From Otis tarda (lineage: Eukaryota > Chordata > Aves > Otidiformes > Otididae): 64,000 bases of DNA. The stretch's first letter is position 1, and the number at the start of each line of letters is the position of its first letter. The translations under genes were made by a program, and so were the position numbers. Where the stretch lies: NCBI GenBank assembly GCA_026413225.1, contig CM048591.1, positions 37,417,803 through 37,481,802 on the forward strand, in the 5' to 3' direction. Positions 36,652-64,000 of this stretch are shown piece by piece. The notes beneath the pieces are model-generated. The model saw only the letters and a program-made list of their open reading frames with translations, was not told where the DNA came from and did no database searches.

Positions 36652-39600
36652 GTAAGCCAAAATACCACTCTGACTTTCAACAAGTGGAGTGCATTGGGAA
36701 GAACATGGATTAAAAGCAATATTCAGGGTAGCACTTCAAGGAATTAAAACTTTATTTAGAATATAAATGTGAGTCTATTTTTGAACAGTGGGCATGATGT
36801 CTAGGGACAGAGGCAAAGATAAAGGACAGAGGTAACACTATTTACTAGACCAGAGTGAAATATAAACTGAGAAAATTACCCAAAGTTTAAGCAGGTATCT
36901 AGAAATTGATGATCTCTTAAGGAAAATGCACCTCATATGTATGAAGTAAATGGACCATTAATTTGAAGTAAGGCAGAAATGAAAAGGAATTTGCCTTTTC
37001 AGAGAAAGAGAAGGAATGTTTCCTAGCTTGTGTAAATTATTAGTGTAGATGAAGGCAGATCTTGAAGTTACTTGTTTTCAGTTGGTTTGCGGTTGGAAGG
37101 AAGTTCCACCTCTGCGTAATTACCTAAGTCTTTCCTTGGGTTATGCTTCTATTGAACAATTTCCTCATTATACCAGTCTTAAAAGAAGCATTGAGCAGAA
37201 TCAGGGGGTAGAAGCTTGTGTCATAGAGCTAGGTCATGACAACAAATTCACAAGTGTGCAGCTGGAGCTTTGAGCCTCATAGGCTTCGAGGACAGGACTG
37301 AACACCTCTCAGACTACAAGATACTGTGAAACTCTCTGAAGAAGCAACAGAAAGGGCCAGGGAGTTGGGAAAAACCTTTAACTTGGAGCTCAATATTGAA
37401 GGAATTGCTTTGCAAAACTGCTTGTTTGCCTGTATAGTCATTGTAGGACACAGCACTTATGGGGACAGAGGTTCAGTGAGTACAGCCATCCTACCTGTCC
37501 TGGAGCTGCACTGTGGAGAACTCCTGGGTAACAGAAGCACTAAACACTAGTGTCCAGAGCAATGGTTCTAGAGGCTTTCTTTTCCCCATGTACATCTAGA
37601 TTGGATCACTTCCTTTGTATGCTAGGGTGCAGAGTGATTTTTACTGTCCCTGTTTCTCTCTGAGTACAAGTAGAGACAGAAACTTAAATTTCACTTGGCA
37701 GTGGGGATACGTGACACACGCCCCAGCCTGTGTGCTATGTGGGACTATGCTAATGCTAATACTCACTTTCTGTGTCCTCTGTGATACTCCACTGCAGGCA
37801 GGGCAGGGTTTCCTCTTTCTGAGCAACAGAAAGAGGATCATAATATTTTCTTTACAACAACATGCCTTTTCCATATTTCACAGATATTGCAAGAGTTTGC
37901 AAGAGTTTGCAAAGTGTAAGGACACAAGAAAGGGCAGATGCAAGAGAAGCAATTCTCGTTTGCACTGCAGCCACTCCATGCTCATTGGCACTAGGCAGGA
38001 GCTTCAAAAGATAGCTTATACAAATCCTAAGGTGGTTTTAAGCTACCACATTGATGTAAATGCTACTCAGTGCATATTTATACTGCATGACATAATTGCG
38101 CAGACACTGTACAAACAGAAAAGGCCTGCATTGAGCTTCTGGCTATCTAAAGATGGTGTGCCAGAATTTAATCTCCTGTGGAGCTTGTTGTTCTTGCCTA
38201 GAGAGAGGCACGACTGGTGACACAAGATTAATATACAGAAGTGAGCACGCTTCTGTATAGAAGATGGATTTTCATTTGGATATGTAGCATTGCAGTCTGC
38301 ACTAGATGGGCTGTTCTACAGCAAAGGAAGGTGCAGAACAGAGAAACTGTGGGAGGACAAGAAGATCCATGAAGAAAAACGTGATAAATACATGCTGACC
38401 ACTTTTATGGGAGACACACGTGGAGCAAGCTTCCCTCAGATCATTAGTCTTGGATGAAGCTACTGCATGCTGAGCAGAAGTATTGCTGTCCGTACTTTCT
38501 GAAAGAAAGAGCAGCTTGCTAAGAAGGCCTGTGCCTTCCCGTGATGATCACAGAGAGATACGTCCTCAGCATGGGGAGGGGAAAAGATTTATCACGGATA
38601 ATTCAGTGTGGAGACTAGAGGCCAGACGTAGCTGACAGGAACTGCTACCTTGATAGAAGCAGAGGGGATTCCCTTACAACATCTACGATCTCTACTGTAC
38701 TGACAGCTGCTGCTGGCACCATACATTTTAACTGTGCTGCAGCAAGCCCAAGACATATCGTTTTGGCAGAAGACACCACCAAGTGCTGGAGCACCGGCAC
38801 TGCACGTAGGCTTTGCTGAAGGAGAAGCCGTTACCAAACATACCAACTGCCCTATACAAGTTTTCGGCCATGCTGAAATGTATTTTTTTCTGCAGTGCTA
38901 AAACAAATGAAGGGTCTTTGACATTTTAAAAACATGGATTAACTTGAAAACCCTTCAAAGGTTTTCTAAAATAGGACTGGAAAAATTGAAGAAAAATGAA
39001 ATTAGGCTTCAGGGAATCAAGTACTCAAAATTAATTCTAACTTTTTAGGTGACTGTGTTTCACACTGAAGATGATCCTGATGATGATGATGCGCAACATA
39101 GTACTGATGTATCTCTACAGCTTCCAATTGAGAAATCAGCTTGTTTCACCCAGGGCCCCCTACAGCATACTGTACTGCATGCGTGGGACCTGCACACATC
39201 CAGGAGATAGAGTGACTAAAAAGATCACCTACTGCTTTATTTTATGCTTAGGAAAAAAAATATTGTAATCAACTGTAAGTAATCAGAGTTTTTCATAGTT
39301 ACATGAATTGTAAAGGCATGTGGAATTTTAATATCTTTAAATAGTTACAAGATTAAATATTAAAAAACCTGGGCCCTTCTTGGCACCCGGACTCATCTGC
39401 TCCTATGGGGTGTGTGAATGAGACCCATTGTTCTAGTGGAACACCTACCTGAGGAGGAAACAGGAGAGGCCACCCCATGATCACCTTGCTGGTCAGGGGG
39501 GCTGCAGTCCTGGAGCAGAAGTGTGAGCATTGCTGGAAGGTGCCTTCTAAGGGGCTTGTAGGTTCTGTCTGACCTGAAAAGCCTGAAGGCAGATGAAGGG

Positions 39601-47473: not shown

Positions 47474-47704
47474 AGCATCATAGAATGGTTAGGGTTGGAA
47501 GGGACCTTTAAAGGTCATCTAGTGCAACCCCCCTGCAAGGAGCAGGGACATCTCCAACCACATCAGGTTGCTCAGAGCCTCATCCAGCCTGGCCTTGAAC
47601 GTTTCCAGGGATGGGGCATCCACCACCTCCCTGGGCAACCTGTTCCGCTGTCCTACCACCCTCATTGTACAAATTTTTTTTCCTTAAGTCCAGTTTGAAT
47701 CTAC
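47474..47704 (-). mobile_element. CR1 LINE 3'-end fragment next to the RFK CpG island
   Basis: About 230 bp of well-preserved CR1 3' UTR in reverse orientation. Blocks such as 'tggttagggttggaaggg', 'tctccaaccacatcaggttg', 'tggccttgaacgtttccagg' and 'cacctccctgggcaacctg' appear in family order. It ends where the GC-rich RFK promoter region begins and closely resembles the CR1 split by the LTR at 52917-53655. Confidence 0.9.
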
Positions 47705-48350
47705 CTTCCCTCCGAACAGGCCCCCGCGGCCCGGCTGGGAGAACGGGCCCGGAGCAGCAACCCAGCCCAGCCCCTGCAACGGGGCGCAGTGCGGGCGCGG
47801 GGCTCCAACGCCGCCGGGATGGGTGCGGTGGAAGGCAGGGTGTGAGCGAGTCCATTTCTGAGGGGAGGCAGGTGCCCGCCAGAGAGGTCTGCGAATGGGG
47901 AAGGCAGGGGCGCTCCACCTATAGCTACTCCTCCTCTTGGTAGTGCCCAGAGCCAGGCGGAGGTGAGCGGTGCGAGGCGGTTTGTCGGTCTGGGAGTTGC
48001 CGGCCGCCGGGAGGAACTTGCCGTTGTTCTAACGCTGCGAGGTGGCGACCGGCTTTGGCGGAGGCTCCGAGGAGCTGGGCGTCCCCACCAGTGAGCGGGG
48101 GACCGGGGCGGGGCGGTGCCTGCCGTGAAGGGCACTGGCGAGGTGCTGGCCGCCGCCCGGGAGGCTTTCGGCAGCCGGTACGGTGCTGCCGCGGGGAAGG
48201 GCCGGCGCCGGGCGGAGCAGGGGGGTGCGGGCGTCCGGTTCCGCTGCCGAGGGCCGCGGAGGGTCTGGGTTGGCGGTGAGGAAGCCCGCTTGAGCGCGGG
48301 AGAGGCCCGGCTGCCCCGCATAACCGCAGTGCTGGCGGGACCTGTGCTTG
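47705..48350. promoter_or_regulatory. CpG island at the RFK 5' end
   Basis: GC-rich, CpG-dense sequence covers the position of RFK exon 1 at 48009-48090. In a working gene this would be the housekeeping promoter. Survival of the island although the coding sequence is broken suggests either fairly recent inactivation or continued promoter use. T-rich sequence follows at about 48395-48440. The long overlapping frames in the island are composition artefacts. Confidence 0.75.
48009..48090 (+). pseudogene. RFK: RFK exon 1 remnant (no ATG, premature stop)
   Basis: The frame ending '...ggc gtc ccc acc a' before the donor GTGAGC (48091) matches the conserved start of RFK without gaps. The position of the initiator is GGG (48009-48011). 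The sixth codon after the following Arg is TAA (48030-48032), replacing an expected Cys. Substitutions also include Tyr to Leu, Val to Ala and Arg to Thr. The donor is intact, in phase 1, and matches the two-base start of exon 2. Confidence 0.8.
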
Positions 48351-49725
48351 CTGTGAATAGGTTTGGCTTGTCCCCTGTTAGCGTTTTTCGTGGGGTTTTT
48401 TTGTTTTGGTTTTTTTTTTTGTTGTTTTTTTTTTTTTTTCGTATTGCTTGCAGTCGTGTTCATTCATTTGCGTTATTCTCCGCCCCTCCGTTAAACGATT
48501 TCTTTCTGTTTGCTGTTTTGTTAGTTAGCTCGCCTGGTGATGATGATGATTTGCAAGATGCTGGGAAGTGACCCTGTGCGCTGTGTGTGGTGGTGTGGTG
48601 CGGCAGCTTGGAAAACGTCCGTTCTTACAAACCTGTTGGACCTCGGATGAGGACAAGAAGGGGAGTAGGCACCGGGAGTCACTTTAAGGAAGGAGATGTC
48701 AGGCGAATAACGCAGAGATGAAAAAGCAGAGCGAGCGTTGTTGTCCTAAAAAGAAGTATGTTTTCCCATTGCCATTCTCTGTTTGACTTGTCGGAATACA
48801 GACAGAGGTGCAATTCAAATGAATTTCAGTCTTTTCTATTTAGAAAAGATAGACAGAAGTCAGCGGGCATTTTGCACAAACCCTAATAGGCAAGAAAACC
48901 TCCTCCTGTAACAGATCTTGAGTTACTGGACAAGTGACAACATCTGTTACTGTAAACTTAGATTTTTTTTTTCCTCTTGACTGTTTATATATGGCTTATT
49001 GGTATCAGAGAATGTGGGAGGGAGGTTTTTTTTTTCTGCTTATGAACTAGGATTGAAATTCACTAACTGTAAATTCCTTAAAATCAGCTTGAAACCTTAC
49101 ATGAAGAACTCTACCCATGTGTAAAGTTAAAGTAGGACAGTTGTTTGTCTAAAGGCTTAGATTTATTCCCATCAATCAGGAAGGAACCTATTTTTTTCAG
49201 TTTTGTAGTTTTCTAAGAAAATCCTAGAAATCCCCAAATATGAATAACCTAAAAGGCTACATGAAAAAATGAGGAGGTGACTAAAATCATAACTTTATTT
49301 TTACATATTTTACTTATGAAAAAAAAAACTAATACTTTAGTAATTCTAAGATACTTCTTCACAGTCCAAAAGAAACTTGATTTTTCTATTCTTTGACCAT
49401 GCTAAAATAGTGATAGTCCTAATAGTGAAATTAATTGAGTGCATATTTTAGTTTATTAATTTTACCTATAGATTTCACTAAGTATGGAATAGAAGAATAG
49501 AATGTATGTAACTATGAAATAGTACGTGTAAGAGATGCAGTAACTCTGGTATTACCACAGAGACTACATTTTATGAGGTTGTTTTCTGGTTTATACTTTG
49601 CAAGTGACATGTTGTATCACTATCATCATCACTTTTCTGCTTGTAAGTAGCATGGCTTTTAGGTGTTTGAAAAGTCTGTGATGAGCTTTATTTGCACAAA
49701 TGTATGCTTTCTAAAATTTTTGCAG

Positions 49726-49877
49726 CTAACTTATCTGAGAAAGTAGTCAAAAACTTCCCATCTGATATCTCTACTGGTATATATTATGGATGGGCGTGTC
49801 TTGGAAATGGAGATCTGTGTAAAATGGTTTTCAGCATAGGATGGAATCCTTTCTATAAGAATATTAAGCAATCAGTG
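49726..49877 (+). pseudogene. RFK: RFK exon 2, open
   Basis: 152 bp between TTTTTGCAG and GTAAGA. After two bases completing a split codon, 50 sense codons follow, including NLSEKVVKNFPSDISTG and KMVFSIGWNPFYKN. Length and phase fit the normal second RFK exon. Roughly a quarter of residues differ from what I recall of the conserved vertebrate protein, which is high for this enzyme. An in-frame ATG at 49692 in the intron reads straight into the exon. Confidence 0.85.
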
Positions 49878-50281
49878 GTAAGAATTTTGCTTGTGTGGTA
49901 CTTTGATTATAAGAAATGAGCCAGACATTGACTTTTAATAAGATAAGCAGAATTTGATCCATAAATGACATTAGAGATTCTCCTTGTTGTTAGAAATGTA
50001 TTTGGTATCCATCTCAAATGTTTGTATTCTGTGGAGGAAAAAACATCCCCAAAGACCTCTCAGTAGCCACAGAGCATACAACTGTGGATAAATAAAATTT
50101 ATTTTCATGTACCTCTTTCACCGTTACTTAAATACTTCTGAAATAAACATTAGTATTCCAAAGTGGTTATTGTTCATTGTCTCGATAGCTAGAGAAACAT
50201 AAGCTTAGTAAATGTGTTCAGTTTAGTGGTTATGAGACCCCTAGAATGAGCTGGAAGATACTAATCTCTTATCCTCTGCAG

Positions 50282-50375
50282 TCCATCCACATTTAAAGTA
50301 CGAGATTCTGGGGCATCTTAATTCGTAATGATTTTCAGTAATTCTTCACTTAAGTGGTGGAATCCATACATGTGG
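50282..50375 (+). pseudogene. RFK: Decayed RFK exon 3 (tentative)
   Basis: After the acceptor CTCTGCAG (ending 50281), 'tccatccacat', 'tttaaag' and 'ttctggggcatcttaat' resemble, in order, the expected third-exon DNA encoding THI, F-K and the Tyr-Gly-Glu-Ile-Leu segment, but small gaps and all-frame stops are needed. The normal exon carries the catalytic Glu region. No intact version exists between exon 2 and exon 4; I read that interval base by base. The downstream end and donor cannot be placed. Confidence 0.45.
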
Positions 50376-50629
50376 TGCTGTGGCTTTATACAGAATCAAG
50401 ATCCAAAAATAAATAATAACAAGACAGAGTTAGAATCTTGAACTGTGGCATTTGTGCTTTTCTGGCTATCGGGTGCTGGTGCTTTTCCTGAGTCTTGCGG
50501 AACTTGGTGTTAATTCGCGATACTTGGAAGCAGTTTTATTTTGACGTGACTTCTTGCTTCAAAGATAGCTGCCTTCACTCTTTTTAGAATTTTATCATTC
50601 AGTTCCTATGAGTTACTGGAAGGTCGGTC

Positions 50630-50778
50630 ACGGCACCAAGCCTGTCAGAGTTCAGGGAGCGTCTGGACAATGCTCCTGGTGGTATGGTTTAGTTTTAGGC
50701 AGTCCTGTGAGGAGCAGGGAGTTGGACTCGAGGATCCTCATGGGTCCCTTCTAACTTGAGATATTCTATGATTCTGTG
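50630..50778 (+). mobile_element. CR1 LINE 3'-end fragment
   Basis: Plus-orientation CR1 tail inside the last RFK intron: 'gtctggacaatgctcctggt', 'ggagttggactcgaggatcc', 'tgggtcccttctaacttgag', ending in 'attctatgattctgtg', the terminal octamer repeats. Confidence 0.85.
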
Positions 50779-51288
50779 TCTTACCTTTGACTTTTCAGTA
50801 AAATTATTTTTTAAGCTGAATCTACTAATATATAAATTGTTCATATTAAAAAAGGCAACACCCCACAACTTCCATACTCTCAGTACTTACTTATTTCAGT
50901 CTAAAAATTATATTGTCATGTCAGTCGTGTGAAGAGTAGCTTGAAAATCATGAGTTTGTTGTAAAAGCATTTGTCTTGTCTGTCCATTTCTTTTAAAAAT
51001 GCATCTGTGTTGAAACTGAAACAGTTAATTAAATGCTGTTGACTTTTTGGATAAAATAACTGTATTGGAACAAGGAAAAAGTAGCATTTACAGCAAAGTG
51101 CAGTGCGTGTCAAAAGCATGTCATTTTATAAACAGAGAACGTTGTCTTTCCTACTTCATAATAATAAATATTTTCTGCCTCTGTGATTGTTTTCTGGTGT
51201 TCTGTAGTGCACCCTTTTTCACTTGCTATTGTGTGTTCAGAATTCAGACCAGCTTTTAAATACTGCTTTTCTTACTTCTCTTTTGTAG

Positions 51289-51416
51289 AGGCACTCATTT
51301 CAGCAACTCAAGAAGACACTGAAGAGGGAAAAAGACAGCTAGATTTGCCAGAACATCTTCAACTGAAAGATGACAAGTTCTTTCATCTGCCAGAAGGCAA
51401 AACAGTAAACCACTAA
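51289..51416 (+). pseudogene. RFK: RFK exon 4 (last coding exon), open
   Basis: The acceptor TTTTGTAG is followed by a two-base partial codon, then 41 sense codons and TAA, matching the RFK C-terminus (LPEHLQLKDDKFFHLPEG), with one residue fewer near the end than usual. Exon 2 ends at a codon boundary while this exon starts two bases into a codon, so joining exon 2 directly to it shifts the frame and meets TAG within about 20 codons. A candidate polyadenylation signal AATAAA lies at 51756-51761. Confidence 0.85.
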
Positions 51417-52346
51417 GCAAAACCATGTGGGTTTTTTTTCGTCTCTTGGAACTCTTTTCTTTGTGCTACCATGTATCATTTGATATATGATGTATGTGTG
51501 TGTACTGGATCTGACTAGGATGGAGTTAGCAGCTCACATGATTTTAGATTTGTGACCAAAACAATGAACATGACACATTAATGTTTTAGCTATTCCTGAA
51601 CAGTACTTGTACAGCATCAAGGACTTCTCTGTTTCTCGCTCTGCTCCCCCAGTGAATAGACTGGGTCTGTGGAAGAGGCTGGGAGGGGACACAAAACAGA
51701 CGAATGACCTGAACTAACCAGAGATATTCCATGCCTTATAATGGTAGTGCTGAGCAATAAAATGGAGAGGAGAGGATTTAGGGAGGCTGGCCATCTTTTG
51801 TTTGGGAACTGGCTGGGCATCAGTCTACCTGTGGGAGGTGGAGAGTGATGCATCATTTGTTTTGTTTGCTTGTTAGTCTGTTTTTATCTTGACCCACTAA
51901 TTTTCTTGCTTTTATTCTTCCGTTCTATTTCCCCTGTCCCACTGAGGGTGGGGGGATGCGGCATGAGCTATTGGCTGTATGGTGCTTAGCTGTTTCCAGG
52001 GTTATCCTGTAACAACATGTTTAGGTAATTCTGATTGGAGCTTAAGACTAAAACCACACAAGAAGATTTAAATTTGTTTGTGTTACTTGATCATTTAACC
52101 AGTCATGCAAAGGGAGTAGGAGGCTGGTTTAGGTCTTGATAGAAAAATCATGAATCCAAATGGTACCAATCATTTAGAGATCGTGGCACATGTGGAACAA
52201 AACCAAAGCTAGTTGTGACCTCTTCTACCTCTAAGGTGTGGAAAATTAAATACTTCATTGAAGACTGTTAGTATTTCAGAAAGAGAATGTTATTATGAAC
52301 TCCTTTCCCAATTTTGTGGCATTCTTACATTGTCACAATGTAAGAA

Positions 52347-52386
52347 CCTTCCAACCTAAACTATTTTGTGATTCTGTGATTCTTGG
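52347..52386 (+). mobile_element. CR1 LINE 3'-terminal remnant
   Basis: 'ccttccaacctaaactattt' followed by 'tgtgattctgtgattctt' is the last 40 bp of a plus-strand CR1 including its terminal repeats. It directly abuts a perfect palindrome at 52322-52346. Confidence 0.8.
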
Positions 52387-52539
52387 AATAACATACCAAC
52401 ACTTTAGTAGATATTGAGTATTTATTACAAGTTATTGAGGCCCTTCCCACTCTGAATTGTTTGCACAGGTAAATGGAGGGTGTGTTCTCAATATTGATAG
52501 TAATTTGAAAAATAACTTGTTCTAATTATATAGTATGCA

Positions 52540-52540
<1 letters not shown>

Positions 52541-52582
<42 letters not shown>

Positions 52583-52590
52583 TGTGTGCT
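52541..52590. repeat. TG/TA compound microsatellite
   Basis: GTGTGTG, then about 18 TA units, then GTGTGTG. A long AT dinucleotide tract flanked by GT repeats, likely length-variable. Confidence 0.95.
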
Positions 52591-52847
52591 CCCAAATCTA
52601 CTCCCCCCAGCACAGTACAATTTTATGAATTTCCTCCTTGTCCCATGCCATTCTGATCCTGCTTTTCAGAGAGCTCTGTCAAGGTAGCCTTATGGGAGTT
52701 CTCTACGGTGGGTACTGGCAGCCTGACAGGGTTCCAGTTCGTAATGTTTTAACTTGCAGCCAGTCTCATGGGGTATTTGGGAAAAGGCCTTAAGCAAGGG
52801 AGTCCTTGTAGCTGTGCAGGACTTCAGCCAAAACTTCATTATTTGTG

Positions 52848-52916
52848 GAATCATAGGATGATTTGGGTTGTAAGGGACCTTTAAAGGTCATCTAGTCCAA
52901 CCCCCCTGCAAGGAGC
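52848..52916 (-). mobile_element. CR1 LINE, 3' part, left half of a split copy
   Basis: Reverse-complement CR1 3' end ('gaatcataggatgatttggg' onward) runs to 'ccctgcaaggagc' and is cut exactly where the LTR at 52917 begins. The continuation 'cgggacatctccaac' resumes at 53661. Bases 52912-52916 (GGAGC) form one side of the LTR's target-site duplication. Confidence 0.92.
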
Positions 52917-53655
52917 TGTCACGTTCTGATTTCGGACAAGAGGAAGGCCCCCTTGCGTTCTAGCCGACCTCAGACGAGTCTGGGAGGCTAGGGGCGGCTG
53001 GACCGACCTCTCGCACACCGGAGCGTGGTTTTGCTCGTATTCTCAGGAACAGAATTAAGACTCAAAACGGAGTCAAGTGCTAGGTAACTTTATTAACCCG
53101 ACAAGAAGTTTGTAAACGGAAGAGAAAGGAGAGAAAGGAAAGATGGAAAAGAGTTTCGGTTGTAATAGCTACCACCACGGAGCTGCGGCGTCCCGACAGT
53201 TCAGTTCGCTTGATGGGGGAATGATCCGTCCGGTGTTGGTCGCTCGATGCTGGTTCTGTGGATGTGTATTCCGGCAAATGTATATTCCGTTGAATGAATG
53301 AAGTGAAGTGAAGAAGGGTAGAAGTGTATTCCGTTGAAAAATGTTCCCCTTTTTATGTTGGTTGTTTTCATTGTATTTCAAGAGCTGGTTTTCCTAGCTG
53401 CACCCCTCACCCTCAGGTGATATGCCTGCCCATTACCAGGTGATATGTATCTCTGGGCGCATGCCGGGGGGGGGTGGGGGGGGGGTGGGGTGGGGTGGGG
53501 TGGGGGGGTGTAGGGCTAGATTTCTCGGAACCAGCTCTGCATTCAGGTTCGCAAGACAACAGGAGTTGCCTTGCAAGATAACGGGAAGCGATTGTTCGGG
53601 TCGTGGTTTGATGTTTCAACAATGTTGAGACAAATTTTTGACACAGTCTCTCACA
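52917..53655 (-). mobile_element. Solo LTR of an endogenous retrovirus, inserted in a CR1
   Basis: A 739-bp unit starts TG and ends CA, flanked by a perfect 5-bp duplication GGAGC (52912-52916 and 53656-53660), and splits a CR1. Minus-strand orientation follows from a TATA-like CATAAAAAGGGG at 53346-53357 and a downstream AATAAA on the minus strand at 53089-53094, leaving a GC-rich U5 of roughly 170 bp. A long G-run (53466-53514, plus strand) lies in U3. There is no internal viral coding sequence, so the provirus was reduced to one LTR by recombination between its ends. The family is not identified; the 5-bp duplication is compatible with several avian retrovirus groups. Confidence 0.88.
53466..53514 (+). 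repeat. G-run, G-quadruplex-forming motif
   Basis: Seven runs of four or more G separated by single T bases, in the U3 part of the solo LTR. This satisfies the usual G-quadruplex pattern many times over on the plus strand and may be collapsed or miscounted in assembly. Confidence 0.9.
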
Positions 53656-53660
53656 GGAGC

Positions 53661-53870
53661 CGGGACATCTCCAACTACATTAGGTTGCTGAGAGCCTCAT
53701 TCAACCTGGCCTTGAATGTTTCCAGGGATGGGGCATCAACCACCTCTCTGGGCAATCTGTGCCAGTGTCCACCATCCTCAGTGTAAAAAAAATTCTTCCT
53801 AATGTCCAATATTAATCTACCTCCCTCTATTTTAAAACCGTTACCCCTTGTCCTATCGCAACAGATTAAT
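53661..53870 (-). mobile_element. CR1 LINE, right half of the split copy
   Basis: Continues the 52848-52916 fragment: 'gggacatctccaactacatt', 'tggccttgaatgtttccagg', 'accacctctctgggcaatc', 'ttaccccttgtcctatcgca'. Similarity fades near 53870. Together the halves make about 280 bp of CR1 3' UTR. Confidence 0.9.
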
Positions 53871-54229
53871 TGCTCATCAGTCCTGTTGGTGACAAAGACA
53901 GAAGGGTTGTACACCTCTTGAGGGAGGAAAGAATAATTTCTATAAAAGCATTTATTAGAGTAAGCAGCATTTTGACCTATGTTGCTAACATTGTTTATAA
54001 ATTTAACTCTCCAAAGATACTGTTCTAAGCGTTGCCTGGACATCTTCAGCATACATTTGCCTTTCTAGTAGGAAAATAATGAACTTATCTGTGGTCAGAA
54101 ATACTTAATTTAAAAAAAAACAAAACAGAACAAATCCCAAAATAGTTTAATGGACTTTTACTGTACGTATGTTAGAAATCTATACAAGAATTTTCTTGAA
54201 TGTGAGTTGGTTTTGTCTCCACTTTAAAA

Positions 54230-54694
54230 TTGAGGGATGGTGGGTGTCATGATAAGACACAATATTGTGACATACGGTGTGTTCAAAGGTGTGACAATTC
54301 AGCTACCAGACAATGTCCGTGGGGAACTAGCATTATTCCCGGGTGTAATAATAAGACATTTGTGGGACAGTACCCCAGTTGTACGTGTTCTCCGTGGGTA
54401 TTAGACCATGGAGACTCTAAGTGGAGAAGAGGCCCTGGTGGCTCCTGGACGGTCCAGGGCTTGTGGTCAATCGCTGACTGGTGGGCAACATGGACTAGAG
54501 GGACCACAGTAATAGGAATCCCCGCCTCGCAAGGTTGGTACTGGATTTGTGGTTATACAGGATATAAAGTCTTACCATTGAACTGGGCTGGCCAATGTAC
54601 TATGGGAGTCATAATACCGAAGACGGAACCTGACTTACCTGAACACACCAAAATTCTTACACTCATACATGAGGTTCTTTCGGCAGAGGCGTAG
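54230..54694 (+). pseudogene. env: Endogenous retroviral env, surface-subunit part
   Basis: A 154-codon open segment rich in Cys and Trp, lacking the N-terminal signal peptide and receptor-binding part. Its C-terminal stretch (GYKVLPLNWAGQCTMGVIIP) resembles the end of a gammaretroviral surface subunit. The segment hits a stop at 54692-54694, and the downstream subunit continues in a different frame starting within it, so an indel near 54655-54675 separates the two. The first codon given is TTG; no convincing ATG was found. Confidence 0.8.
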
Positions 54695-55310
54695 TAGCAA
54701 CCCCCTAATAGACAGGCCCACTGGCCTTCATAGTTTTGTGTGGTGGTTTATTCCATGGTTAGGAGTGAGTGAATTAGAAAAGGCCTTAGTAAATATTTTG
54801 GCTACTATGGAAAGTTTCAGTGCTGCGACAGGGGATGCAATCCAAGCCCTTCAAGAGGAGACTTCTTCCTTGAGAAAAATGGTCCTCCAGAATAGACTGG
54901 GTTTAGATATGTTGTTTGCCCAGCAAGGGGGATTATGTACTGCTATAGGCGAGCATTGTTGTACATATGTAAATCAAGAACAAAGGATAGAGAAAGACTT
55001 ATCTAAAATCTGGGAACAAACTAAAGATTTTCATGAAGTAACCAGGGATAACACTTCCTGGGGATTTTCAGACTTGTGGGAGAAGTTAACCTCTTGGCTA
55101 CCAAATTTGACATGGCTGAAACAATTACTTATCGTAATAATCAAAAATATAGTTCTGTTCCTAATCCTTTGTATAACCATTCGGTGTAGCTTCTGGTGTC
55201 TCCAAAACACAGGAAATTCCTATAGTAACTGGAAGAAAAACCAACTACGACAGAGGCTTGAGTCTAACCAATACTTTGAGAAAATGCTAAATAAAGAAAT
55301 GTCATGTTAG
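54669..55310 (+). pseudogene. env: Endogenous retroviral env, transmembrane subunit, open
   Basis: A 213-codon open frame covers the whole membrane subunit. It shows a basic RQRR cleavage-type site at residues 5-8, a hydrophobic fusion-peptide-like segment around residues 22-45, a heptad-rich helix, then QNRLGLDMLFAQQGG and the CX6CC motif CTAIGEHCC at residues 88-96. A membrane span lies around residues 150-178, with a charged tail to the stop. The chance ATG at its start is internal to the original gene. It is out of frame with the surface-subunit part, so the env gene as a whole is broken, although this subunit has no stop. Confidence 0.85.
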
Positions 55311-55358
55311 AATTAGGTATACTAAAGGAATTTACTAACTCTCTAGAAAAGGGGGGAC

Positions 55359-55920
55359 TGAAAGAAGGGGTTAAAGAAATTCTAATAGATATGGCATTGA
55401 TTAGTTACAGCTGTGCATACTAAGACAAATGGTGCTATCTGTTGTGTAAATTATCTGAGGTGGGAAGTCTTGCATTCCTCACAAGGACAGTTCCTGATAA
55501 GAACCAGGGGGCACCCTCCAAGAGCAACTGACCCTAACATAACTGCATCTGCAACATAACTGGCCAAAACATAACTGCATCTGCATGAAAACAAAAGGTT
55601 ACCAGCGGTGACGAAGAGGAGTCGCCTACCTTCATCCCCACAATGCCGGACGACCACCACCACGAGGCACTGCGCAAGCGCGGATAGGAGGAGTTTATGG
55701 AAGTGACCCCTTTGAACTAATTTTAATACGAAGCGGGGATAGGTCATGCATATGCATAGGTATATTGTGAAACTTCATGTATATGTAACACCTGGCTGTA
55801 TAAATTCAAAGTGAGTTGCCGGGACTATCCCCCCGCCCCCACCCGCCGTGCTGCCCGGCGCTGAATAAACGTACCTACTTTACAATCTTACCGATTGTGG
55901 AGTCCGTTTTCCGCACGTCA
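55359..55920 (+). mobile_element. 3' LTR of the gammaretrovirus-like provirus
   Basis: The LTR begins TGAAAG right after the polypurine tract at 55347-55358. U3 holds a direct repeat of an 18-bp unit (55536-55553 and 55568-55585) and a 12-bp palindrome ATGCATATGCAT (55746-55757), both plausible enhancer elements. TATAAA is at 55799-55804 and AATAAA at 55864-55869, implying a short R of about 60 bp and a U5 of about 35-40 bp. The right end at 55920 (CA) is inferred and could be off by some bases; no target-site duplication can be tested because the left side is deleted. Confidence 0.8.
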
Positions 55921-56908
55921 GTACCTCCATTGAAAAGAGAATAGAAGGTACATGTGATGTAATTTTGCATCTTAACACCTAGTTCATGCCGAGTATGTCT
56001 ATTATCAGATTCTTTAGTCATCTGTTGTTTGATATGATAGCTTATTATTGTAATATGCATGTAGTAATCAGGAAGAAAAAAAAGAGTGGAATAACTTCTT
56101 AAAGTCTTTCTGTTCAAAAGAACAGCACTCCAAGGAAGTCCCCTTCTGCTTTTGACATCCAGGATCTCTGACTGCATGTGACAAGTGCTAAGAGCCAGAA
56201 GGAAAGTGTCAAGACTGCAGAACAGGAAGAATCAAAAGTGAAGTAACATGCAGGTGATAACTCAAAATGTGACTGAAGTGGTGTGGCCAAACCACAACAA
56301 AGAACCTCTGAAAAAAAAAAAATTGACATTTGAGAAGAATTTGGAGTGGTTTGCTCTTTTTTTTTTTTTTAATTTATTTTTTTTTCAGATGTGTACTTAG
56401 AAATGCAAATTTGTCCCAGGCTGACTTGCACCAATTTAGACAAAATTCTTTTAATGAACAGATTTTCCAAAATGAGTGGGTTTTTTCCCCATTTCTTGTT
56501 AGTGTTTTTTTACCACTCAAGTTAACTTTAGATGCAACAAACCATTTTCATAAAACAATTATTAAGTTAGTCTGAGATCCCATAAACAAAATGCTCATTC
56601 ATCTGTCACAGTTGTTTCAGACTGCTCAGGCATAGCTAGGATTAAGCCTTTGAAACGTGAGCAGAGGTTTCAGGTAAAAGTAAATTCTTACAGTTGTGTT
56701 ATAAGCTGTTAACAACAATAATAAAGCATACTGTTAATCCAGACAAGTTTAGGAGAGAAGGGTAACACCATCACTTTCCTTCAGTATGACCTTTCAAACT
56801 GATTGTTTTTACTCTTCTTTCCCTCTTCCATTTCTTCAGAACTTCACCAGAGCTGAACTTGAATTAAAGGGACAGATAACATGCATCTTTCTGAAGTACC
56901 TTACTGTT
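55921..56908. other. Gene-free stretch between LTR elements
   Basis: About 1 kb of AT-rich sequence with a T-rich run at about 56357-56385. No gene is recognised. Confidence 0.6.
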
Positions 56909-58048
56909 TGTCGTAGTTCAGGCCTGATCAGGACCAGACTACGCAGTCTCTCTCTCACTCCCCCCACCCTCCGAGAGAACAGGGAGAGAAAATATAAGGA
57001 AAAACGGCTCGAGGTTTGAGATAAGGACAGGGAGAAATCCTTAAAGTTATTGTCACGGGCAAAACAGACTCGACTTGGGGAAAACTATTCATTTATTACT
57101 ACAAATAGCAGGAGAATGAGACAGGGAACAAGATAACCTCCATCCACCCCTCCCTCTTCCCAAGCTTAACATTATCTCTACTACTTTCCCCCCTGCCCCG
57201 AGCAGCACAGGGGGGAAGAGGAAATGGGGGTCGCGGTCAGTTCATCATACGTTGTTTCACGCCGCTGCTTTGTGGTCGGGGGAAGAACTCCTTGCATTCC
57301 TCCCCTGCTCCAGCGTGGGGTCCCACCCCTACGCCAGAGTCCTTCGTGGAACTGCTCTGGCATGGGTCATCTCTTCCACGGGTGCAGTCCCTCTAGAACA
57401 GCTGTCCCAGCGGGCCCTCCACGGGCCACAGCTGCCTTCAGGCATCCACCTCCCCCGGTACGGGGTCCTTCACGGGCTCCAAGTGGATCTCTGCTCCTCT
57501 GTGGGCCTCCATGGGCTGCAGGGGGACAACCTGCTCCACCATGGTCGTCACCACAGGCTGCAGGGGAATCTTGGCCAGGAGCCGCATTACTCCTCCCCCT
57601 CACTTCTGAACTGACCTTGGTGTCTGCAGCTGTTTCTCACAACAGGCTGGTAGATGTCTCTCAGGATCTTTTTTACATCTTATTCACTTCTCATCTCCTC
57701 TCCACTTCTTGCAGCTAGGCTGGACCAAGTCAGGCCCAGTCGGCTGCCTGGCGAGAGGCCAGAGGGTGAGGCCTGCAAGGCCCATGAGGCCTGCGCCTCC
57801 CCCTCTGTGCCTCTGCCCCCACTCAGCTTCTTCACATCTTCTCTCTTTTTTTTTTTTTCTGTTTTCCCCTTCTTAAATACGTTATCGCAGAGGCGTTCTC
57901 ACGGAACATTCTGCTACCAATCGGCTCGGCCTTGGCTGGCAGCAGGCCCTAGGCCTGGCCGAGTCCACTGAACAAAGGGGAGCAACTTCTAGCAGTTTCC
58001 TACAGAAGCTGACACCTTAGGCCCCCCCTCACTAACAAAACCACGACA
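56909..58048 (-). mobile_element. Solo LTR of an endogenous retrovirus, 1140 bp
   Basis: Flanked by a perfect 5-bp duplication CTGTT (56904-56908 and 58049-58053). On the minus strand it starts TGTCGTGG and ends CTACGACA, with perfect TGTCGT/ACGACA terminal inverted repeats. TATTTAAG on the minus strand (57871-57879) is a TATA candidate, and AATAAA on the minus strand (57092-57097) is the polyadenylation signal, leaving about 180 bp of U5. The interior is GC-rich, which explains the long meaningless frames at 57224-57718 and 57654-57971. No viral coding sequence remains. The family is not identified. Confidence 0.9.
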
Positions 58049-58409
58049 CTGTTGTATAACTTTTGGTAAATATAGGTCCTTTGTTTAGCTTTTGTGAAGT
58101 CATGTGACTTTTAATTCCTTTCTCTTAGTGAAGGTGCAATGATTCAAAGGTTAAAATTCAAAGAAGCAGCAATAAACCTCCGTAAAACTTCCTTAAGCTT
58201 ACAGATGGAACTATCCTGATGTCTTTAGGAATACTTAATATAAAAAATTTGACTGAGGCATTGAGCTATAAAAATCAGATATTTTTACACAATTCCTTTG
58301 CAGACACTAAATCTAATTAATTAATTTTTAATTCTAGAGCAATTTCTTACTGGAAATCTAAAGGAACTCTTGAGTGTGCGTGAAACTCGGCAAATAACAG
58401 CATTTTCAA

Positions 58410-59465
58410 GACAGTTTTGTGCAAGGAATTTATTCTTTCACAACAAAGGTCCATAAACAGCATCCTTTCCTTTAGTATGATAAATTACATTTCTGTAATA
58501 ATAATAAAAAAATCACATTGCTGTGTTCCTTTAAATTATGTTACCAAATAAGTGCTCATTGTTACCTTTGCCATTGTCTGAACATCCTGAGCAATCTACA
58601 ACAGAAATGGAAAAGCTGCTTGTATAAATATTCAGTGTTTAAATCACTGAGAAAGTAGTTAAAAAGACAGGAGGAGTCCTTTTTTTTTTCGTGGGCATGC
58701 TTGTAGACTGTATTTCCCTTTGCAGTAAACCCTGAAGTTGGTGTGTACAACGAACAATTATTTGACAAACACCAGAGTAAAGATTAATCAGAGGTTAGTA
58801 TATAAAATATTTTAGGTATGTTTCATACAAACTGTGAATACAGTATAGTTGCCTGGAGTAGAGTCACAATCAGAAACCTTAAAACATCATGTCATAGGTG
58901 CACAATTTTTAAGTAGGAATGTGTTGGCTTCAAGGAACACAGAAGCACCAGACGATACCAATGAAGAAAATCGGGGTAAAGTCAGCAAACTTGCCTGTTC
59001 TATTACAAATTGCTGAGTAACTATAATCACAAAGTAGTAAACTACTGGCACCCTATCCCAGTGGCATTCATCAGGTAGATAAGTACACCTATCTGGTTTA
59101 TATCTGCACATTTCTAGTAGTGATTGGCAAGCTTCTCAATAAGTGTGTGTGCATGGTTTGAAGCAGACTTTGTGTTAGTTATAATGCACACAAATAACAT
59201 GTTGGAAAAGGATTTACTCTCCACACAAATGCACAGAAATGTAATCTTTTAACCAGCCTACATCTGGAGTGCTACTTAAAAGCCTAGCAAGGATTTCTGT
59301 AAAGCTTTGGTAAAAAATGTTTTTAGAAACCGTTCTGCTCTCACAATAACTGTTAGCTAAAATCTTCAGCTCAGCATACAAAGAAGTAACTAAACGTACT
59401 TAACTAAATTGCTGTAATTTAATAGGAAAAACAACAGAGCAGGAAATGAATAAATTAGTAAAGAG
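58410..59465 (-). other. PCSK5: PCSK5 3' untranslated region (inferred)
   Basis: About 1 kb downstream of the PCSK5 stop on the minus strand, AT-rich and without another frame. The candidate polyadenylation signal AATAAA (minus strand) is at 58429-58434, giving a cleavage site near 58410. The end is inferred from the motif only. The 1.14-kb solo LTR begins about 360 bp beyond it. Confidence 0.5.
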
Positions 59466-59869
59466 TTATCTAAATGAATAACTTTCATCATCGTATTCAA
59501 GCTCATCTTCCTCATCATCCTCCAAAAGTCCATATCTAAATTTGCGATAGACTGTGCCATCCTGGCCCATGTATACAATGTCATCTTCTTCATCATCATC
59601 TTCATTATCCCGATCTCTGTACTCAATCACTTGATCTTCCTGGTAACTGGAACTCTCGTGGTAGCTGCTCACGTAGGAAGGAAAGGTTTTGGAGTGATTT
59701 GTCAGCTTCTCATACCCACCTTTATTGACAGCCTGGGTTTTGGCTCGTGATTTTCTCCAGATGAATACAATGGCTCCAATGACAAGGAGAAGTAAAATGC
59801 AAGTAATAACAAAGAAAGCAGTTTTGCTTTTGCTCTTGGGTGGTAGGGTGGTCCGTAATACACAATCAT
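59466..59869 (-). CDS. PCSK5: PCSK5 last coding exon: membrane span and cytoplasmic tail
   Basis: 404 bp from acceptor TTGTAG to a stop at 59466. It encodes DDCVLRT, a 22-residue hydrophobic span (TAFFVITCILLL onward, about 59757-59822), a basic stop-transfer RKSRAK, then the tail. The tail has two acidic clusters, NEDDDEEDD and LLEDDEEDELEYDDE; in mammalian PC5B such clusters direct cycling through the trans-Golgi network. The tail ends SYSFR. Confidence 0.95.
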
Positions 59870-62366
59870 CTACAACGACAGTTAAAAAAAAACCCAAAAC
59901 ATTAAATAAGCCTGTGTGCCTGTTTAGGGAGGGTGAGGGGTAAAAAAAATTGTCTTAAAAAAACCCAGTTCAATGTTTAGGCCTGCTTACATTTTTAGAT
60001 GCATTCCACTAAGTACCTCACTGTTCCAATAGCACAAGTGTGTTCTTGTAGCTGTGATGGTGTAGGTATGTAAGCAATGTTGCTGGGATAGCTATGCTTG
60101 TTTATTAGATTAGAAATAATCAGAAAGAAGCAGAAAAGCTAGCAGGCACACAAAGACATTTTGACACGATGAGCTCAATATGCAGTGATTCAGATGGCTA
60201 TCCACTGAAGCAAGCACTTCCCAGTCTCCTGGTTTATGAAGTGCCAGGCCATTTAGCATGACAGCTGTAGTGAAAGCAGGTGCCATCTCCCGCATCAGTC
60301 GCAATAGCTGCTCTTTGCAAAAAGCCCTTCACATTCTGGTGACGGAGCAGTAGAGACACAGTGTGTGCCTGCAGCTCAGCAGCACATTTTTGCTCTATTC
60401 CCCTTTAGATTTTTAAACATCAGCCTAGTCGGTCACAAAGCCCTTCAGCACCATTACTGCTCTCCTGCGTGGTCGTACCTTGTGTTTCGCTGCAGTCACA
60501 GCATTCCGGGGCACCTGGCGTGTTGGAATCACTGCAGCAAGGCAGGCAGCGGCCTTCCTCCAGGTAGAGCTGCATGTTGGCCGGACAGACTGTGCAGTTG
60601 AGAGGCCCGGGTCCCTTGCACTCGGTGCACGAGCTGTCACATCTCTCACACTTGGGCTCGTCCTCCTTCAGACACAGAACACAAGCAATGCCCCTTTCAT
60701 TCGGGATTCTTTGGACCTGGCCTGGAAGTTCTGTCCTGTCATTCACTGTCTGGGTGGTCATCTCTGGGCACCAGGAACGTCAATGGCAAAATACAGCAGG
60801 GAGTAGGAAAACTAAAATTTTGTTTGTATTTCCTGGGTTCTCGGTGCTCTGCTTGTAAGGAGAGGGGGAAAAGTGCTGTAGGAGCTTAGAAATCTCACCT
60901 AGCTACACAGCAAGATAACATTCATTCAGACTGTAAGCTCTTTGGCCAAAAAATATATTTTTATTTTGCTAGTCCCATGCTAGCAGGTCTATGGTTCTTT
61001 GGTAGTACTGATGCTGAAGCAGCATTCAGGAAGTTCGCTCACTTGTATTACTGAAAGTAACTGACATGAGAGAAGCAATATGAAATATTCTGGGGAAAAA
61101 AAAAAGGCACCTGAGAGAACGAATTTCCTTTCTAACTTGGGCAGGAGCAGAAATAAGGAATAAAGATGGCTAGAATTTTCTAGCAAACCAGATTTTTATT
61201 AGATTGTGCTGGTTCTGTTTTACAGAAATAGCTTAGATTCAAATACACTTCTCAAATTTCCAGATAGGCTCTTGGGAGCCTCTCTGTACAAAGACTACTA
61301 GAGATCATTGTTGTCACATCTGCCTTGCAGAATGCTCTGAGCTCAGGTATTTCAGGGCTTCCACTGTTCACGGTTCCTGGCCTAATGGGAAAAAAATTGC
61401 TATTTTTCTGCCATGAGACCAGGACTTCATATCCACTGTGAGGATCTGGAAACTCAAATAACCTATCATCAAACTTGCTGTCAGACCTGCGAGGCTGCTT
61501 GTCCTGGATCAAAGAACCTGGGCAAGATGGCAGGGTCATAGTGGGAGGTCCCGTTTCTCAGAGCCAAAGCTCTTGCAAAGAACTGTGTGCCTCTGTGGTC
61601 TCCAGCTCTTAGGCTGTTTTCTCAGGCTCACAGTTACGAAGCAGCACTTCTAAGAGGATATTCCAGGCCAGAGACTCCAGGGTATGCAGCATCTCAAGCC
61701 AGCTGGCTTGCCTTGCTGCAATGTTCTTGAATAAACATCTTTGGAAAGCAGTTGGTGTGGAAATCTGGAAGCTGGAGTGCCCAGACTTGTGGCACAGACC
61801 CAAACCTAATTGTGGTCCTATTCTACTAAATATACAGCTCTGTTAACTTCAGCCTGTCCCTCCACTAGAGGTTTTTGCCAGCAGAGCTGTCAATCAGGAA
61901 TGCAATGTGATTTCTTACAGAAAAAGCAGCAGAAATCCATGGGGAAATCTCTGTTATACTGGAAGAAAAGAATTTCTGTCTTACTAATATAATTGATTTT
62001 GTTCACATGGCTTTGGTATCATCAATTGACAAAGTTGTGCCTTTAAATTTACTGGTAGAGGATTACTCTATAGTAGACAACGCCAGAAAGAGAAACAATG
62101 CTTCTACTGCCAAGAGAAGAAAAGGGTAAGTATATGTAAAGATAAGCAGCCTTGAAAACTCAGAGAAGAGCATTCCATGTTGTCTGTATTGTGTTCAGAA
62201 GTTAAACTTCAGCATAAAAATAACAAGCGAAAATGCCTGCAAATAGGTACCTCTTGTCCTGGTGTTTCCTGAACTTTGTATTCACCTACAAAGCAGTCTG
62301 AGTTGCACATTCCACCTAATAAACTGTAGCTCCATACACAAGATGTGCAGCTGAATGCTCCCTTTC
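59466..62366 (-). CDS. PCSK5: Proprotein convertase subtilisin/kexin type 5, B isoform, last three coding exons
   Basis: PCSK5 (PC5/6) is a secretory-pathway serine protease that cleaves precursors after basic residues. The B isoform adds a long Cys-rich furin-like repeat region, a membrane anchor and a cytoplasmic tail. Only the C-terminal end lies here, in exons 62251-62366, 60479-60665 and 59466-59869, joined in consistent phases by canonical AG/GT sites. They encode the end of the Cys-rich domain (GAFSCTSCVW, CERCDSSCTECKGPG, ECCDC), one membrane span and an acidic tail with YRDRD, VYMGQDGTVYRKF and LEYDDESYS. The protease domain lies on earlier exons beyond 64000. It is convergent with the RFK pseudogene. 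All visible parts are open and conserved in character, so I expect a working gene. Confidence 0.93.
60479..60665 (-). CDS. PCSK5: PCSK5 exon, second from last
   Basis: 187 bp. The acceptor is TGTGTTCTGTGTCTGAAG with a good pyrimidine tract, and the donor is AAG followed by GTACG. It encodes EDEPKCERCDSSCTECKGPG and then Cys-rich sequence ending PECCDCSETQ. The open frame extends upstream into the intron to an ATG at 60761, but the pyrimidine tract and protein similarity place the exon start at 60665. It ends with one base of a split Asp codon. Confidence 0.9.
62251..62366 (-). CDS. PCSK5: PCSK5 exon, third from last
   Basis: 116 bp between TTTCTAG and GTACCT on the minus strand. It begins with two bases of a split codon and then encodes KGAFSCTSCVWSYSLLGG and MCNSDCFVGEYKVQE, part of a furin-like Cys-rich repeat. 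The SCTSCVWSY motif is diagnostic for the PC5B C-terminal region. It ends on a codon boundary, matching the next exon. Confidence 0.92.
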
Positions 62367-64000
62367 CTAGAAAGGCAAATAAAACAACAATAATACAACA
62401 GGAAAAATTGTCATCTGAGTTCCTTTAAAAATATACTGACCACTGCCACCAAAGAAAAGGGTATTTGTCAACAGCAAGAATCAGCAGTGAGGAGTTCAGC
62501 ATGAGGAAGCTGGTATTAGAAGGAGCTTGGGCCTAGTTTTGAGGTTTTATGTGCCCACAAAGTGTGTTTCTTATGTGTTTTGATATTCATGAAAAGCTGA
62601 TTTGGGAATCAGTTGTACAGGGCAGCTCCAACACATTCAGGAAAATCAATTTGATCAGTGCACTGAAGGAAAATTGTGGGGAACCTTGGCCCCCTTGGCT
62701 CTCCTTCACATAATCAGTACTTAATAGGCCTGCTAGCTAACCATATTCAAACCACAATGAATTAAGGTATGTTTGTGTTTGAATAGCAAAATAAATTATT
62801 TAGTTGCATAAGAAAAAAAAAATCTTCACTGGGTACAAACAGGACTTCATATGCACTTTGTGTGTTGGAGACTCTTTTTGAATACAGATGCTGCATGCAG
62901 TATTTCTGTGAAACACTGAAGTGAAGGGTTTGTCCTATGTGTCAAGATGCACCTGTCCAATTCCCTGCAACTAGGCATTTTCTGCCACTATCTGAAAGGA
63001 ACAAAATGGAAATGCAAGCAGCTTACCTTAGCAGCAGTTGAACAGCTGAAGTTAGCAACCTTCTGTAACCCAGTGAATTTACTACGTGATTTTTATGAGC
63101 AGTGCAGGGTTTGCTTTCCTGCTCTTGAGAAACAAAAGACACTGCAACACTTCCTTGCTCATACATCAGCAATGCAGATGCATTTCAGAACACCGACACT
63201 GCTGTTTAGAAGGACTGGCTTGTGTTTCATCTTAGCATCTCTCTAATTATGACAGAAAATCTGTCGTGTAGTATTTATCCCAAATAATGTAAAAATCAAT
63301 GGAAGTAGTCTGTAAATTAAAATGGCTATCCTTTCGTCCCAAATTCAAGCCAAAACATTTCTGTTACTTGTTATAATGTTGTTATATAGTTACTTTTAAT
63401 AGTTCTTGAAGGTAGCTTCACTCTAAGGGTTATTTCCACAATTTAAAATATTGCTGTGTTGCAGTTAGCCATCTGTGCTATCCAGTATAATCACTATCTG
63501 AAACAAATTTTGTGTGTTACAATACGGTGTGATCTAAGCTGCAGAGTGGTGCCTGTTAGCTATCATCTGACACCGTTCAGATAGAAAAGGGCACTGAATG
63601 GGTCCAAGGGGATTAGTGCCTCTTGCTTCAGAATTGGATGAATTAAGGAAAAGAAGAAACTGAATGTGTAAGTGTATCACAGAACAAAACAGATGGCCTC
63701 TCAAAGTTAACTTTGAAAAATACTTCACTATACTGAAAGCAGCAGACATCACTGATTTAGGGGATTTTGTTTTGCTTTTCACACTAAAGAGATGCTTTAT
63801 AGCTGTTTCTACTCTTCCCTTTGCAGATGGTAAAGATACGTGGTTGGATTTAGGTTCCTTGGCTTTCAGAGCCAGAGTAACACATAGTAGGACATCTTGA
63901 AGAGTGAGATATTATTCAGTCATTATTCAGTGTTTGTGTGAGAAACGAAGTCCAGCTCTGTAAGCAACAGAGCCCTTTTTTTGAAATTGATAAGCATCTT
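62367..64000 (-). other. PCSK5: PCSK5 intron (no further exon seen)
   Basis: Upstream of the 62251-62366 exon I found no further Cys-rich furin-like coding segment on the minus strand. The plus-strand frames here (62947-63246, 63664-63900) do not resemble known proteins. I read it as intron continuing beyond the window. Confidence 0.65.

What the first reader, a model, noticed from the sequence alone, without database searches (positions are those of the whole stretch)
48009..51416. The RFK locus next to PCSK5 is a broken, intron-containing copy
Four independent lesions are visible: GGG in place of the start ATG, TAA at 48030-48032 in exon 1, PTTN instead of the invariant PTAN motif, and loss of a usable exon 3. 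Yet splice sites, exon phases, the promoter CpG island and the ancestral tail-to-tail position with PCSK5 are kept. RFK makes FMN and is generally essential, so a second functional copy must exist: a retrocopy, a relocated duplicate, or a Z copy if this were W-linked. A unitary-style loss at the ancestral site with function transferred elsewhere would be notable.
Basis: partly seen in the sequence, partly recalled or inferred. Interest (0 to 1): 0.8.

Follow-up and report, generated by a model that had tools for sequence, protein, structure and literature searches.

The report
Dead duplicate RFK gene in bustards
A gene for the vitamin B2 enzyme riboflavin kinase is truly broken here, but it appears to be the spare one of two copies that many birds carry, so its loss in bustards is probably ordinary decay of a redundant duplicate.

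Summary
In detail: at 48009-51416 lies an intron-containing riboflavin kinase (RFK) locus with GGG for the start codon, an in-frame TAA in exon 1 and no recognisable exon 3, tail-to-tail with open PCSK5 exons. PTTN is real but keeps both Mg2+ ligands, so it is not a lesion by itself. The best protein match is the bustard Lophotis; the bustard Chlamydotis has one too. Both lack exon 3 and read the window's intron DNA into their gene models, so this is an old bustard pseudogene, not an assembly error. Chlamydotis also has a second RFK with exons 2-4 intact. Avian RFK splits into copy A (in the listed hits, all that ratites and passerines gave) and copy B (Galloanserae, many Neoaves); tree, C-terminal deletion and intron edge put the window in B. 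In two parrots B and PCSK5 share a contig length. Copy A models read intron-1 DNA homologous to the window's, so the pair arose by genomic duplication, not retroposition. The locus is a duplicated pseudogene, not a unitary loss. W-linkage is unlikely, not excluded. An AU test alone does not reject a bustard-specific duplication. The place of copy A is unknown: the genome search did not complete.

The parts
47700..48400 (+). CpG-rich promoter/exon 1 region of the RFK locus
   Evidence: GC 0.63-0.745 and CpG o/e 0.62-0.95 in 200-base windows from 47601 to 48400
48009..48090 (+). RFK exon 1 remnant: GGG for ATG (48009-48011), TAA at 48030-48032, last base A so that the PTAN Ala codon becomes Thr
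   Evidence: alignment with 51 relatives, part of which carry exon 1
49726..49877 (+). RFK exon 2, reading frame still open, several residues not seen in the relatives compared
   Evidence: Pfam PF01687 E 4e-07; tblastn E 2.7e-21; residues
49878..51288 (+). Intron 2 + intron 3 with exon 3 missing (the exon whose first codon is Glu86 in intact RFK)
   Evidence: numbering on koala P0056: Thr 27 and Glu 79, offset 7; role of Glu86 from passages of PMC1079889
51289..51416 (+). RFK exon 4, open, natural stop; ends GKTVNH* as in the avian B lineage
59469..60779 (-). Last two PCSK5 exons, inside open frames 59469-59954 and 60423-60779; a third exon piece inside 62212-62424
   Evidence: open frames; joined peptide 88% identical over 100% to PCSK5-like of Ara ararauna

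Best explanation
This is a duplicated, unprocessed pseudogene of the avian RFK-B paralogue. RFK was duplicated as genomic DNA, introns included, in the bird line, probably before Galloanserae and Neoaves split. Copy A stayed conserved and presumably supplies FMN; copy B lies beside PCSK5 but evolved faster. In the bustard line B was free to decay: exon 3 (with Glu86) was lost, exon 1 gained a stop and lost its ATG, while exons 2 and 4, splice sites and the CpG island linger. It makes no riboflavin kinase. Shown: the lesions, the missing exon 3 in three bustard sequences, a second RFK with intact exons 2-4 in one bustard, the A/B split in the tree. Inferred: that A supplies FMN in the window's bird, the age of the duplication, that no unusual splicing rescues the gene.
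For: Lesions. Lophotis P0001 and Chlamydotis P0007 are its orthologues: P0001 runs through the window's intron 3 end into exon 4 (E 2.7e-31) and begins at the codon after the window's TAA; P0007 uses window intron 1 (48525-48614, E 1.5e-12) and intron 2/3 DNA (50559-50630, E 7.7e-09, 96% identical) in place of exons 1 and 3. Tree: the three bustard rows together 100/99*, stem 0.18, inside a 25-row B clade, 97/87*. The B clade also stands when 12 fast rows, the window among them, are left out (13 rows, 96/88*). All 22 B rows with a complete C-terminus lack the last alignment column, which is filled in all A and outgroup rows except the truncated Pipra. The intron 1 end read into owl B models (LRKCTLSKIFA) resembles the window's (LHKCMLSKIFA) more than that of owl and falcon A models (HSHFTLSKIFA, HSRFTLSKIFA). 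A and B, judged by tree or motif, both occur in Phasianus, Anas platyrhynchos, Chlamydotis and Buteo japonicus. Equal contig lengths for B and PCSK5: 110438430 in Ara ararauna, 109727540 in Guaruba.
Against: The AU test does not reject a tree that joins the bustard pseudogenes with the Chlamydotis intact copy (p 0.33, lnL 7.83 lower); the missing exon 3 removes the most diagnostic sites. Copy A was not seen in the window's own genome (genome search did not complete). P0015's model has no proper exon 1 (it reads intron 1 instead), so only exons 2-4 are shown intact in a bustard. Clustering at 90% identity could hide further bustard copies.
Confidence: 0.82

Rival explanations
1. Decayed W-linked gametolog: the window is from the W chromosome and an intact B copy sits on Z.
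For: PCSK5 and RFK belong to the human chromosome 9 region homologous to avian Z (recalled). Clusters at 90% identity could hide an intact bustard B copy.
Against: Three PCSK5 exon pieces are open. Only 1078 of 64000 bases are self-similar within the window at E 1e-8, unlike an ERV-packed W; a weak test. A review of W gene content has 0 mentions of RFK or PCSK5 in its main text (PMC7599627; passages only, supplements not seen). In ten species B is on contigs of 78-110 Mb.
Confidence: 0.08
2. Bustard-specific duplication: one bustard RFK was copied late and the PCSK5-side copy died; the resemblance to lineage B is convergence or long-branch pull.
For: AU test p 0.33 for joining the bustard copies.
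Against: B clade with the window 97/87*, shared C-terminal deletion, B-like intron 1 edge, and equal contig lengths of B and PCSK5 in two parrots.
Confidence: 0.08
3. Assembly or base-calling error in a functional gene.
For: Exon 1 is GC-rich, a hard region for sequencing.
Against: Models from two other bustard species also lack exon 3 and share novel residues with the window.
Confidence: 0.01
4. Still-transcribed locus with another role (promoter-derived RNA or a short peptide).
For: CpG island and splice sites persist.
Against: Exon 2 to exon 4 joining frameshifts. A CpG island is expected to outlive a gene for some time. Transcription itself could not be tested.
Confidence: 0.05

Closest known systems
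Riboflavin kinase (RFK, PF01687)
   Same: Exons 2 and 4 align with human RFK; splice phases fit intact relatives
   Different: No start codon, stop in exon 1, no exon 3 and so no Glu86
Avian 'riboflavin kinase-like' (lineage B of this report)
   Different: B proteins of galliforms, ducks, parrots and pigeon in the alignment look complete or nearly so; the bustard one is dead
Duplicated pseudogenes in general
   Same: Lineage-specific decay with a paralogue retained
   Different: Nothing different in kind; this gene pair was not found described

Membership tests
Duplicated (unprocessed) pseudogene | Intron-containing, with disabling lesions | tested here: met
Duplicated (unprocessed) pseudogene | An intact paralogue in the same species or close kin | tested here: met
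   Chlamydotis P0015, exons 2-4 intact; not tested in the window's own genome
Unitary pseudogene | No functional paralogue remains | tested here: not met
   Second RFK in a bustard; A and B in four species
Processed retrocopy (the locus, or copy A) | No introns | tested here: not met
   The locus has introns. Copy A models P0014 (owl) and P0015 (Chlamydotis) read sequence homologous to window intron 1 (from 49530, inside a match with E 2.7e-36 that includes exon 2; and 48587-48691, E 2e-04); two A rows (P0011, P0031) read a similar intron 2 start. Copy A DNA itself was not seen
W gametolog | Female-specific depth; Z homologue of the same lineage | not testable with these tools
   No reads or sexed assemblies; indirect evidence against
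Avian RFK lineage B | Groups with 'riboflavin kinase-like' of other neognaths | tested here: met
   97/87*, C-terminal deletion; AU test of one alternative inconclusive
Functional riboflavin kinase | Start codon, Thr and Asn of PTAN, Glu86 | tested here: not met
   No ATG, stop in exon 1, exon 3 with Glu86 missing; Thr and Asn of PTAN are kept

The most novel reading that the evidence does not exclude
In neognath birds the RFK copy that kept the ancestral place beside PCSK5 (B) is a degenerating lineage that died in bustards and perhaps in raptors, penguins and others, while FMN synthesis moved to a second, segmentally duplicated copy (A) elsewhere: a housekeeping enzyme leaving its ancestral, probably sex-linked site.
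Probability: 0.2. Interest if true: 0.5.

Novelty: new member of a known kind. Interest (0 to 1): 0.27.

Why it matters
It corrects gene catalogues. Automatic annotation calls the dead bustard copies 'RIFK kinase' and 'riboflavin kinase-like'. In pheasant 'riboflavin kinase' is lineage B and '-like' is A, while in ducks it is the other way round (A in Anas platyrhynchos, B '-like' in Anas acuta and Oxyura). If B is dying repeatedly, the pair is a neat case for dating the loss of a redundant copy of an essential-enzyme gene.

Tried and rejected
Retrocopy as the functional gene: disfavoured, copy A models read intron sequence. PTTN as a lesion: rejected, the Mg2+ ligands are kept. A second RFK in the window: none seen; besides exons 2 and 4 the next tblastn match of human RFK had E 0.078 (36905-36988, minus strand, stop inside), and the exon-3 profile did not pick it up. 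Rfam: no match at gathering thresholds. Pfam on 20 frames in all, the RFK and PCSK5 ones included: only Flavokinase (RFK exon 2) and a retroviral Env domain passed the curated cut-offs. Self-repeats as a test of W-like density: few, a weak test. No direct repeats of 60 bases in 51500-58500, so no paired LTRs. Literature: no paper on an avian RFK duplication (listings and starts of abstracts; some searches showed only 20 of 28, 10 of 158 and 10 of 168 papers). No paper was read whole; passages only of PMC10354230, PMC12852100, PMC7599627 and PMC1079889.

Full report
Observation. Exons 1, 2 and 4 lie at 48009-48090, 49726-49877 and 51289-51416 with consensus splice sites and compatible phases. 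The start position reads GGG, behind GCCGCC, and codon 8 is TAA (48030-48032). Exons 2 and 4 are open and match human RFK (1nb0, E 3.2e-32; tblastn 2.7e-21 and 1.1e-09). Exon 3 cannot be found: human exon 3 scores no better than in shuffled intron (184 of 200 shuffles as high), and a profile of 47 relatives gives a best domain score of -3.2 bits against a median of -2.4 and a maximum of 3.4 in 100 shuffles (the stretch scanned was slightly longer than the stretch shuffled). In relatives exon 3 is 34 codons plus one base (deduced from the proteins and the phases), so skipping it shifts the frame and translation stops 17 codons into exon 4.

What the loss means. Passages of PMC1079889 say that Thr34 and Asn36 of PTAN bind Mg2+ and that Glu86 may activate riboflavin. 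On a 155-residue relative (koala P0056) these are positions 27, 29 and 79, an offset of 7, so Glu86 is the first codon of exon 3. Thr and Asn are kept in the window's PTTN, so that change is not itself disabling. The missing start, the stop and the missing exon 3 are.

Which bird. The best of 187 protein hits (120 listed) is the bustard Lophotis ruficrista P0001; Chlamydotis macqueenii P0007 is seventh. Both lack exon 3. P0007's model uses translations of the window's intron 1 (48525-48614, E 1.5e-12) and of the stretch between exons 2 and 4 (50559-50630, E 7.7e-09); P0001's reads the window's intron end into exon 4. P0001 begins at the codon after the window's TAA, which suggests, but does not show, that it shares the stop. 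Nine window residues not seen in 49 other rows are shared with at least one of the two other bustard sequences; six more are in the window alone, at one of which the other two have no residue. So the window is probably from a bustard, and the decay of this copy predates the split of these three sequences' lineages.

Two avian RFK lineages. A maximum-likelihood tree of 52 rows (the window and 51 proteins that I chose, 47 from the 120 listed hits and 4; 155 columns, LG+G4) puts 25 rows, the window included, in one clade B (97/87*), nested among avian A rows. Without 12 fast rows, the window among them, and under a mixture model, the remaining 13 B rows stay together at 96/88*. All 22 B rows with a complete C-terminus lack the last column, which A and outgroup rows fill except the truncated Pipra. 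In the listed cluster representatives, B was seen in Galliformes, Anseriformes and many Neoaves; passerines and ratites gave only A; clusters may hide members. A and B, by tree or motif, co-occur in Phasianus, Anas platyrhynchos, Chlamydotis and Buteo japonicus. Against: an AU test does not reject joining the bustard pseudogenes with Chlamydotis copy A (p 0.33). For: the window's intron 1 end resembles that of owl B models (LRKCTLSKIFA against LHKCMLSKIFA) more than that of owl and falcon A models (HSHFT/HSRFTLSKIFA).

Location. Three PCSK5 exon pieces on the minus strand are open, and their joined peptide is 88% identical to PCSK5-like of Ara ararauna. The longest contig of that cluster and the contig of Ara's B-type RFK have the same length (110438430); the same holds for Guaruba (109727540). 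I read equal lengths as the same contig. In the squamates Gekko kuhli and Phrynosoma, RFK and the PCSK5 homologue also share contig lengths and have locus tags 4 and 3 apart, so the neighbourhood is older than birds. Where A lies is unknown; no second RFK was found in the 48 kb upstream of B.

How A arose. Copy A models contain intron 1 sequence homologous to the window's: the owl Athene P0014 from window 49530 on, within a match that includes exon 2 (E 2.7e-36), and the intact Chlamydotis copy P0015 at 48587-48691 (E 2e-04). Two A rows (Regulus P0011, Mesembrinibis P0031) read an intron 2 start like the window's. A therefore has introns: genomic duplication, not retroposition. Intron likeness to Chlamydotis copy A (51% of residues) is lower than to Chlamydotis copy B (77-96%), as expected if the duplication is older than bustards; the stretches are short.

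Z or W. Passages of PMC10354230 and PMC12852100 say that one great bustard and one houbara assembly are from males and lack a W; I do not know which assembly the window is from. Low self-similarity (1078 of 64000 bases) and open PCSK5 exons speak weakly against W.

Verdict. A real, well described pseudogene, but of a redundant copy. It is ordinary in kind, with a modest open question about the A/B pair and possibly repeated decay of B.

Noticed in passing
52850-53827: A CR1-like copy (name recalled; its relative is at 47477-47712) is split by a 739-base insert, 52917-53655, starting TGT and ending ACA with a 5-base duplication GGAGC: a likely solo LTR.
   Followed up: partly
54206-55310 (+): Two overlapping open frames; the second matches retroviral Env (PF00429, E 2.9e-20): remnant of an endogenous retrovirus between RFK and PCSK5.
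   Followed up: partly
P0044, P0045, P0046, P0054, P0060 (Accipitridae); P0039, P0041 (penguins): B-type RFK models look damaged: the raptor ones lack ANFSEQ (P0044 and P0046 read PTGER there, the others start later), the penguin ones read PTDER before ANFSEQ, and P0039 has a shifted exon 3 end. B may be dying in several bird lines, or these are gene-model artefacts.
   Followed up: no
10201-11400: A second GC-rich block (GC 0.56-0.795, CpG o/e 0.51-0.91 in 200-base windows) with long frames on both strands; possibly the promoter island of another gene. Pfam gave nothing for two of its frames.
   Followed up: partly
31232-31675 (-): Open frame that by recalled likeness reads as a CR1 LINE fragment; Pfam gave no match.
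   Followed up: partly
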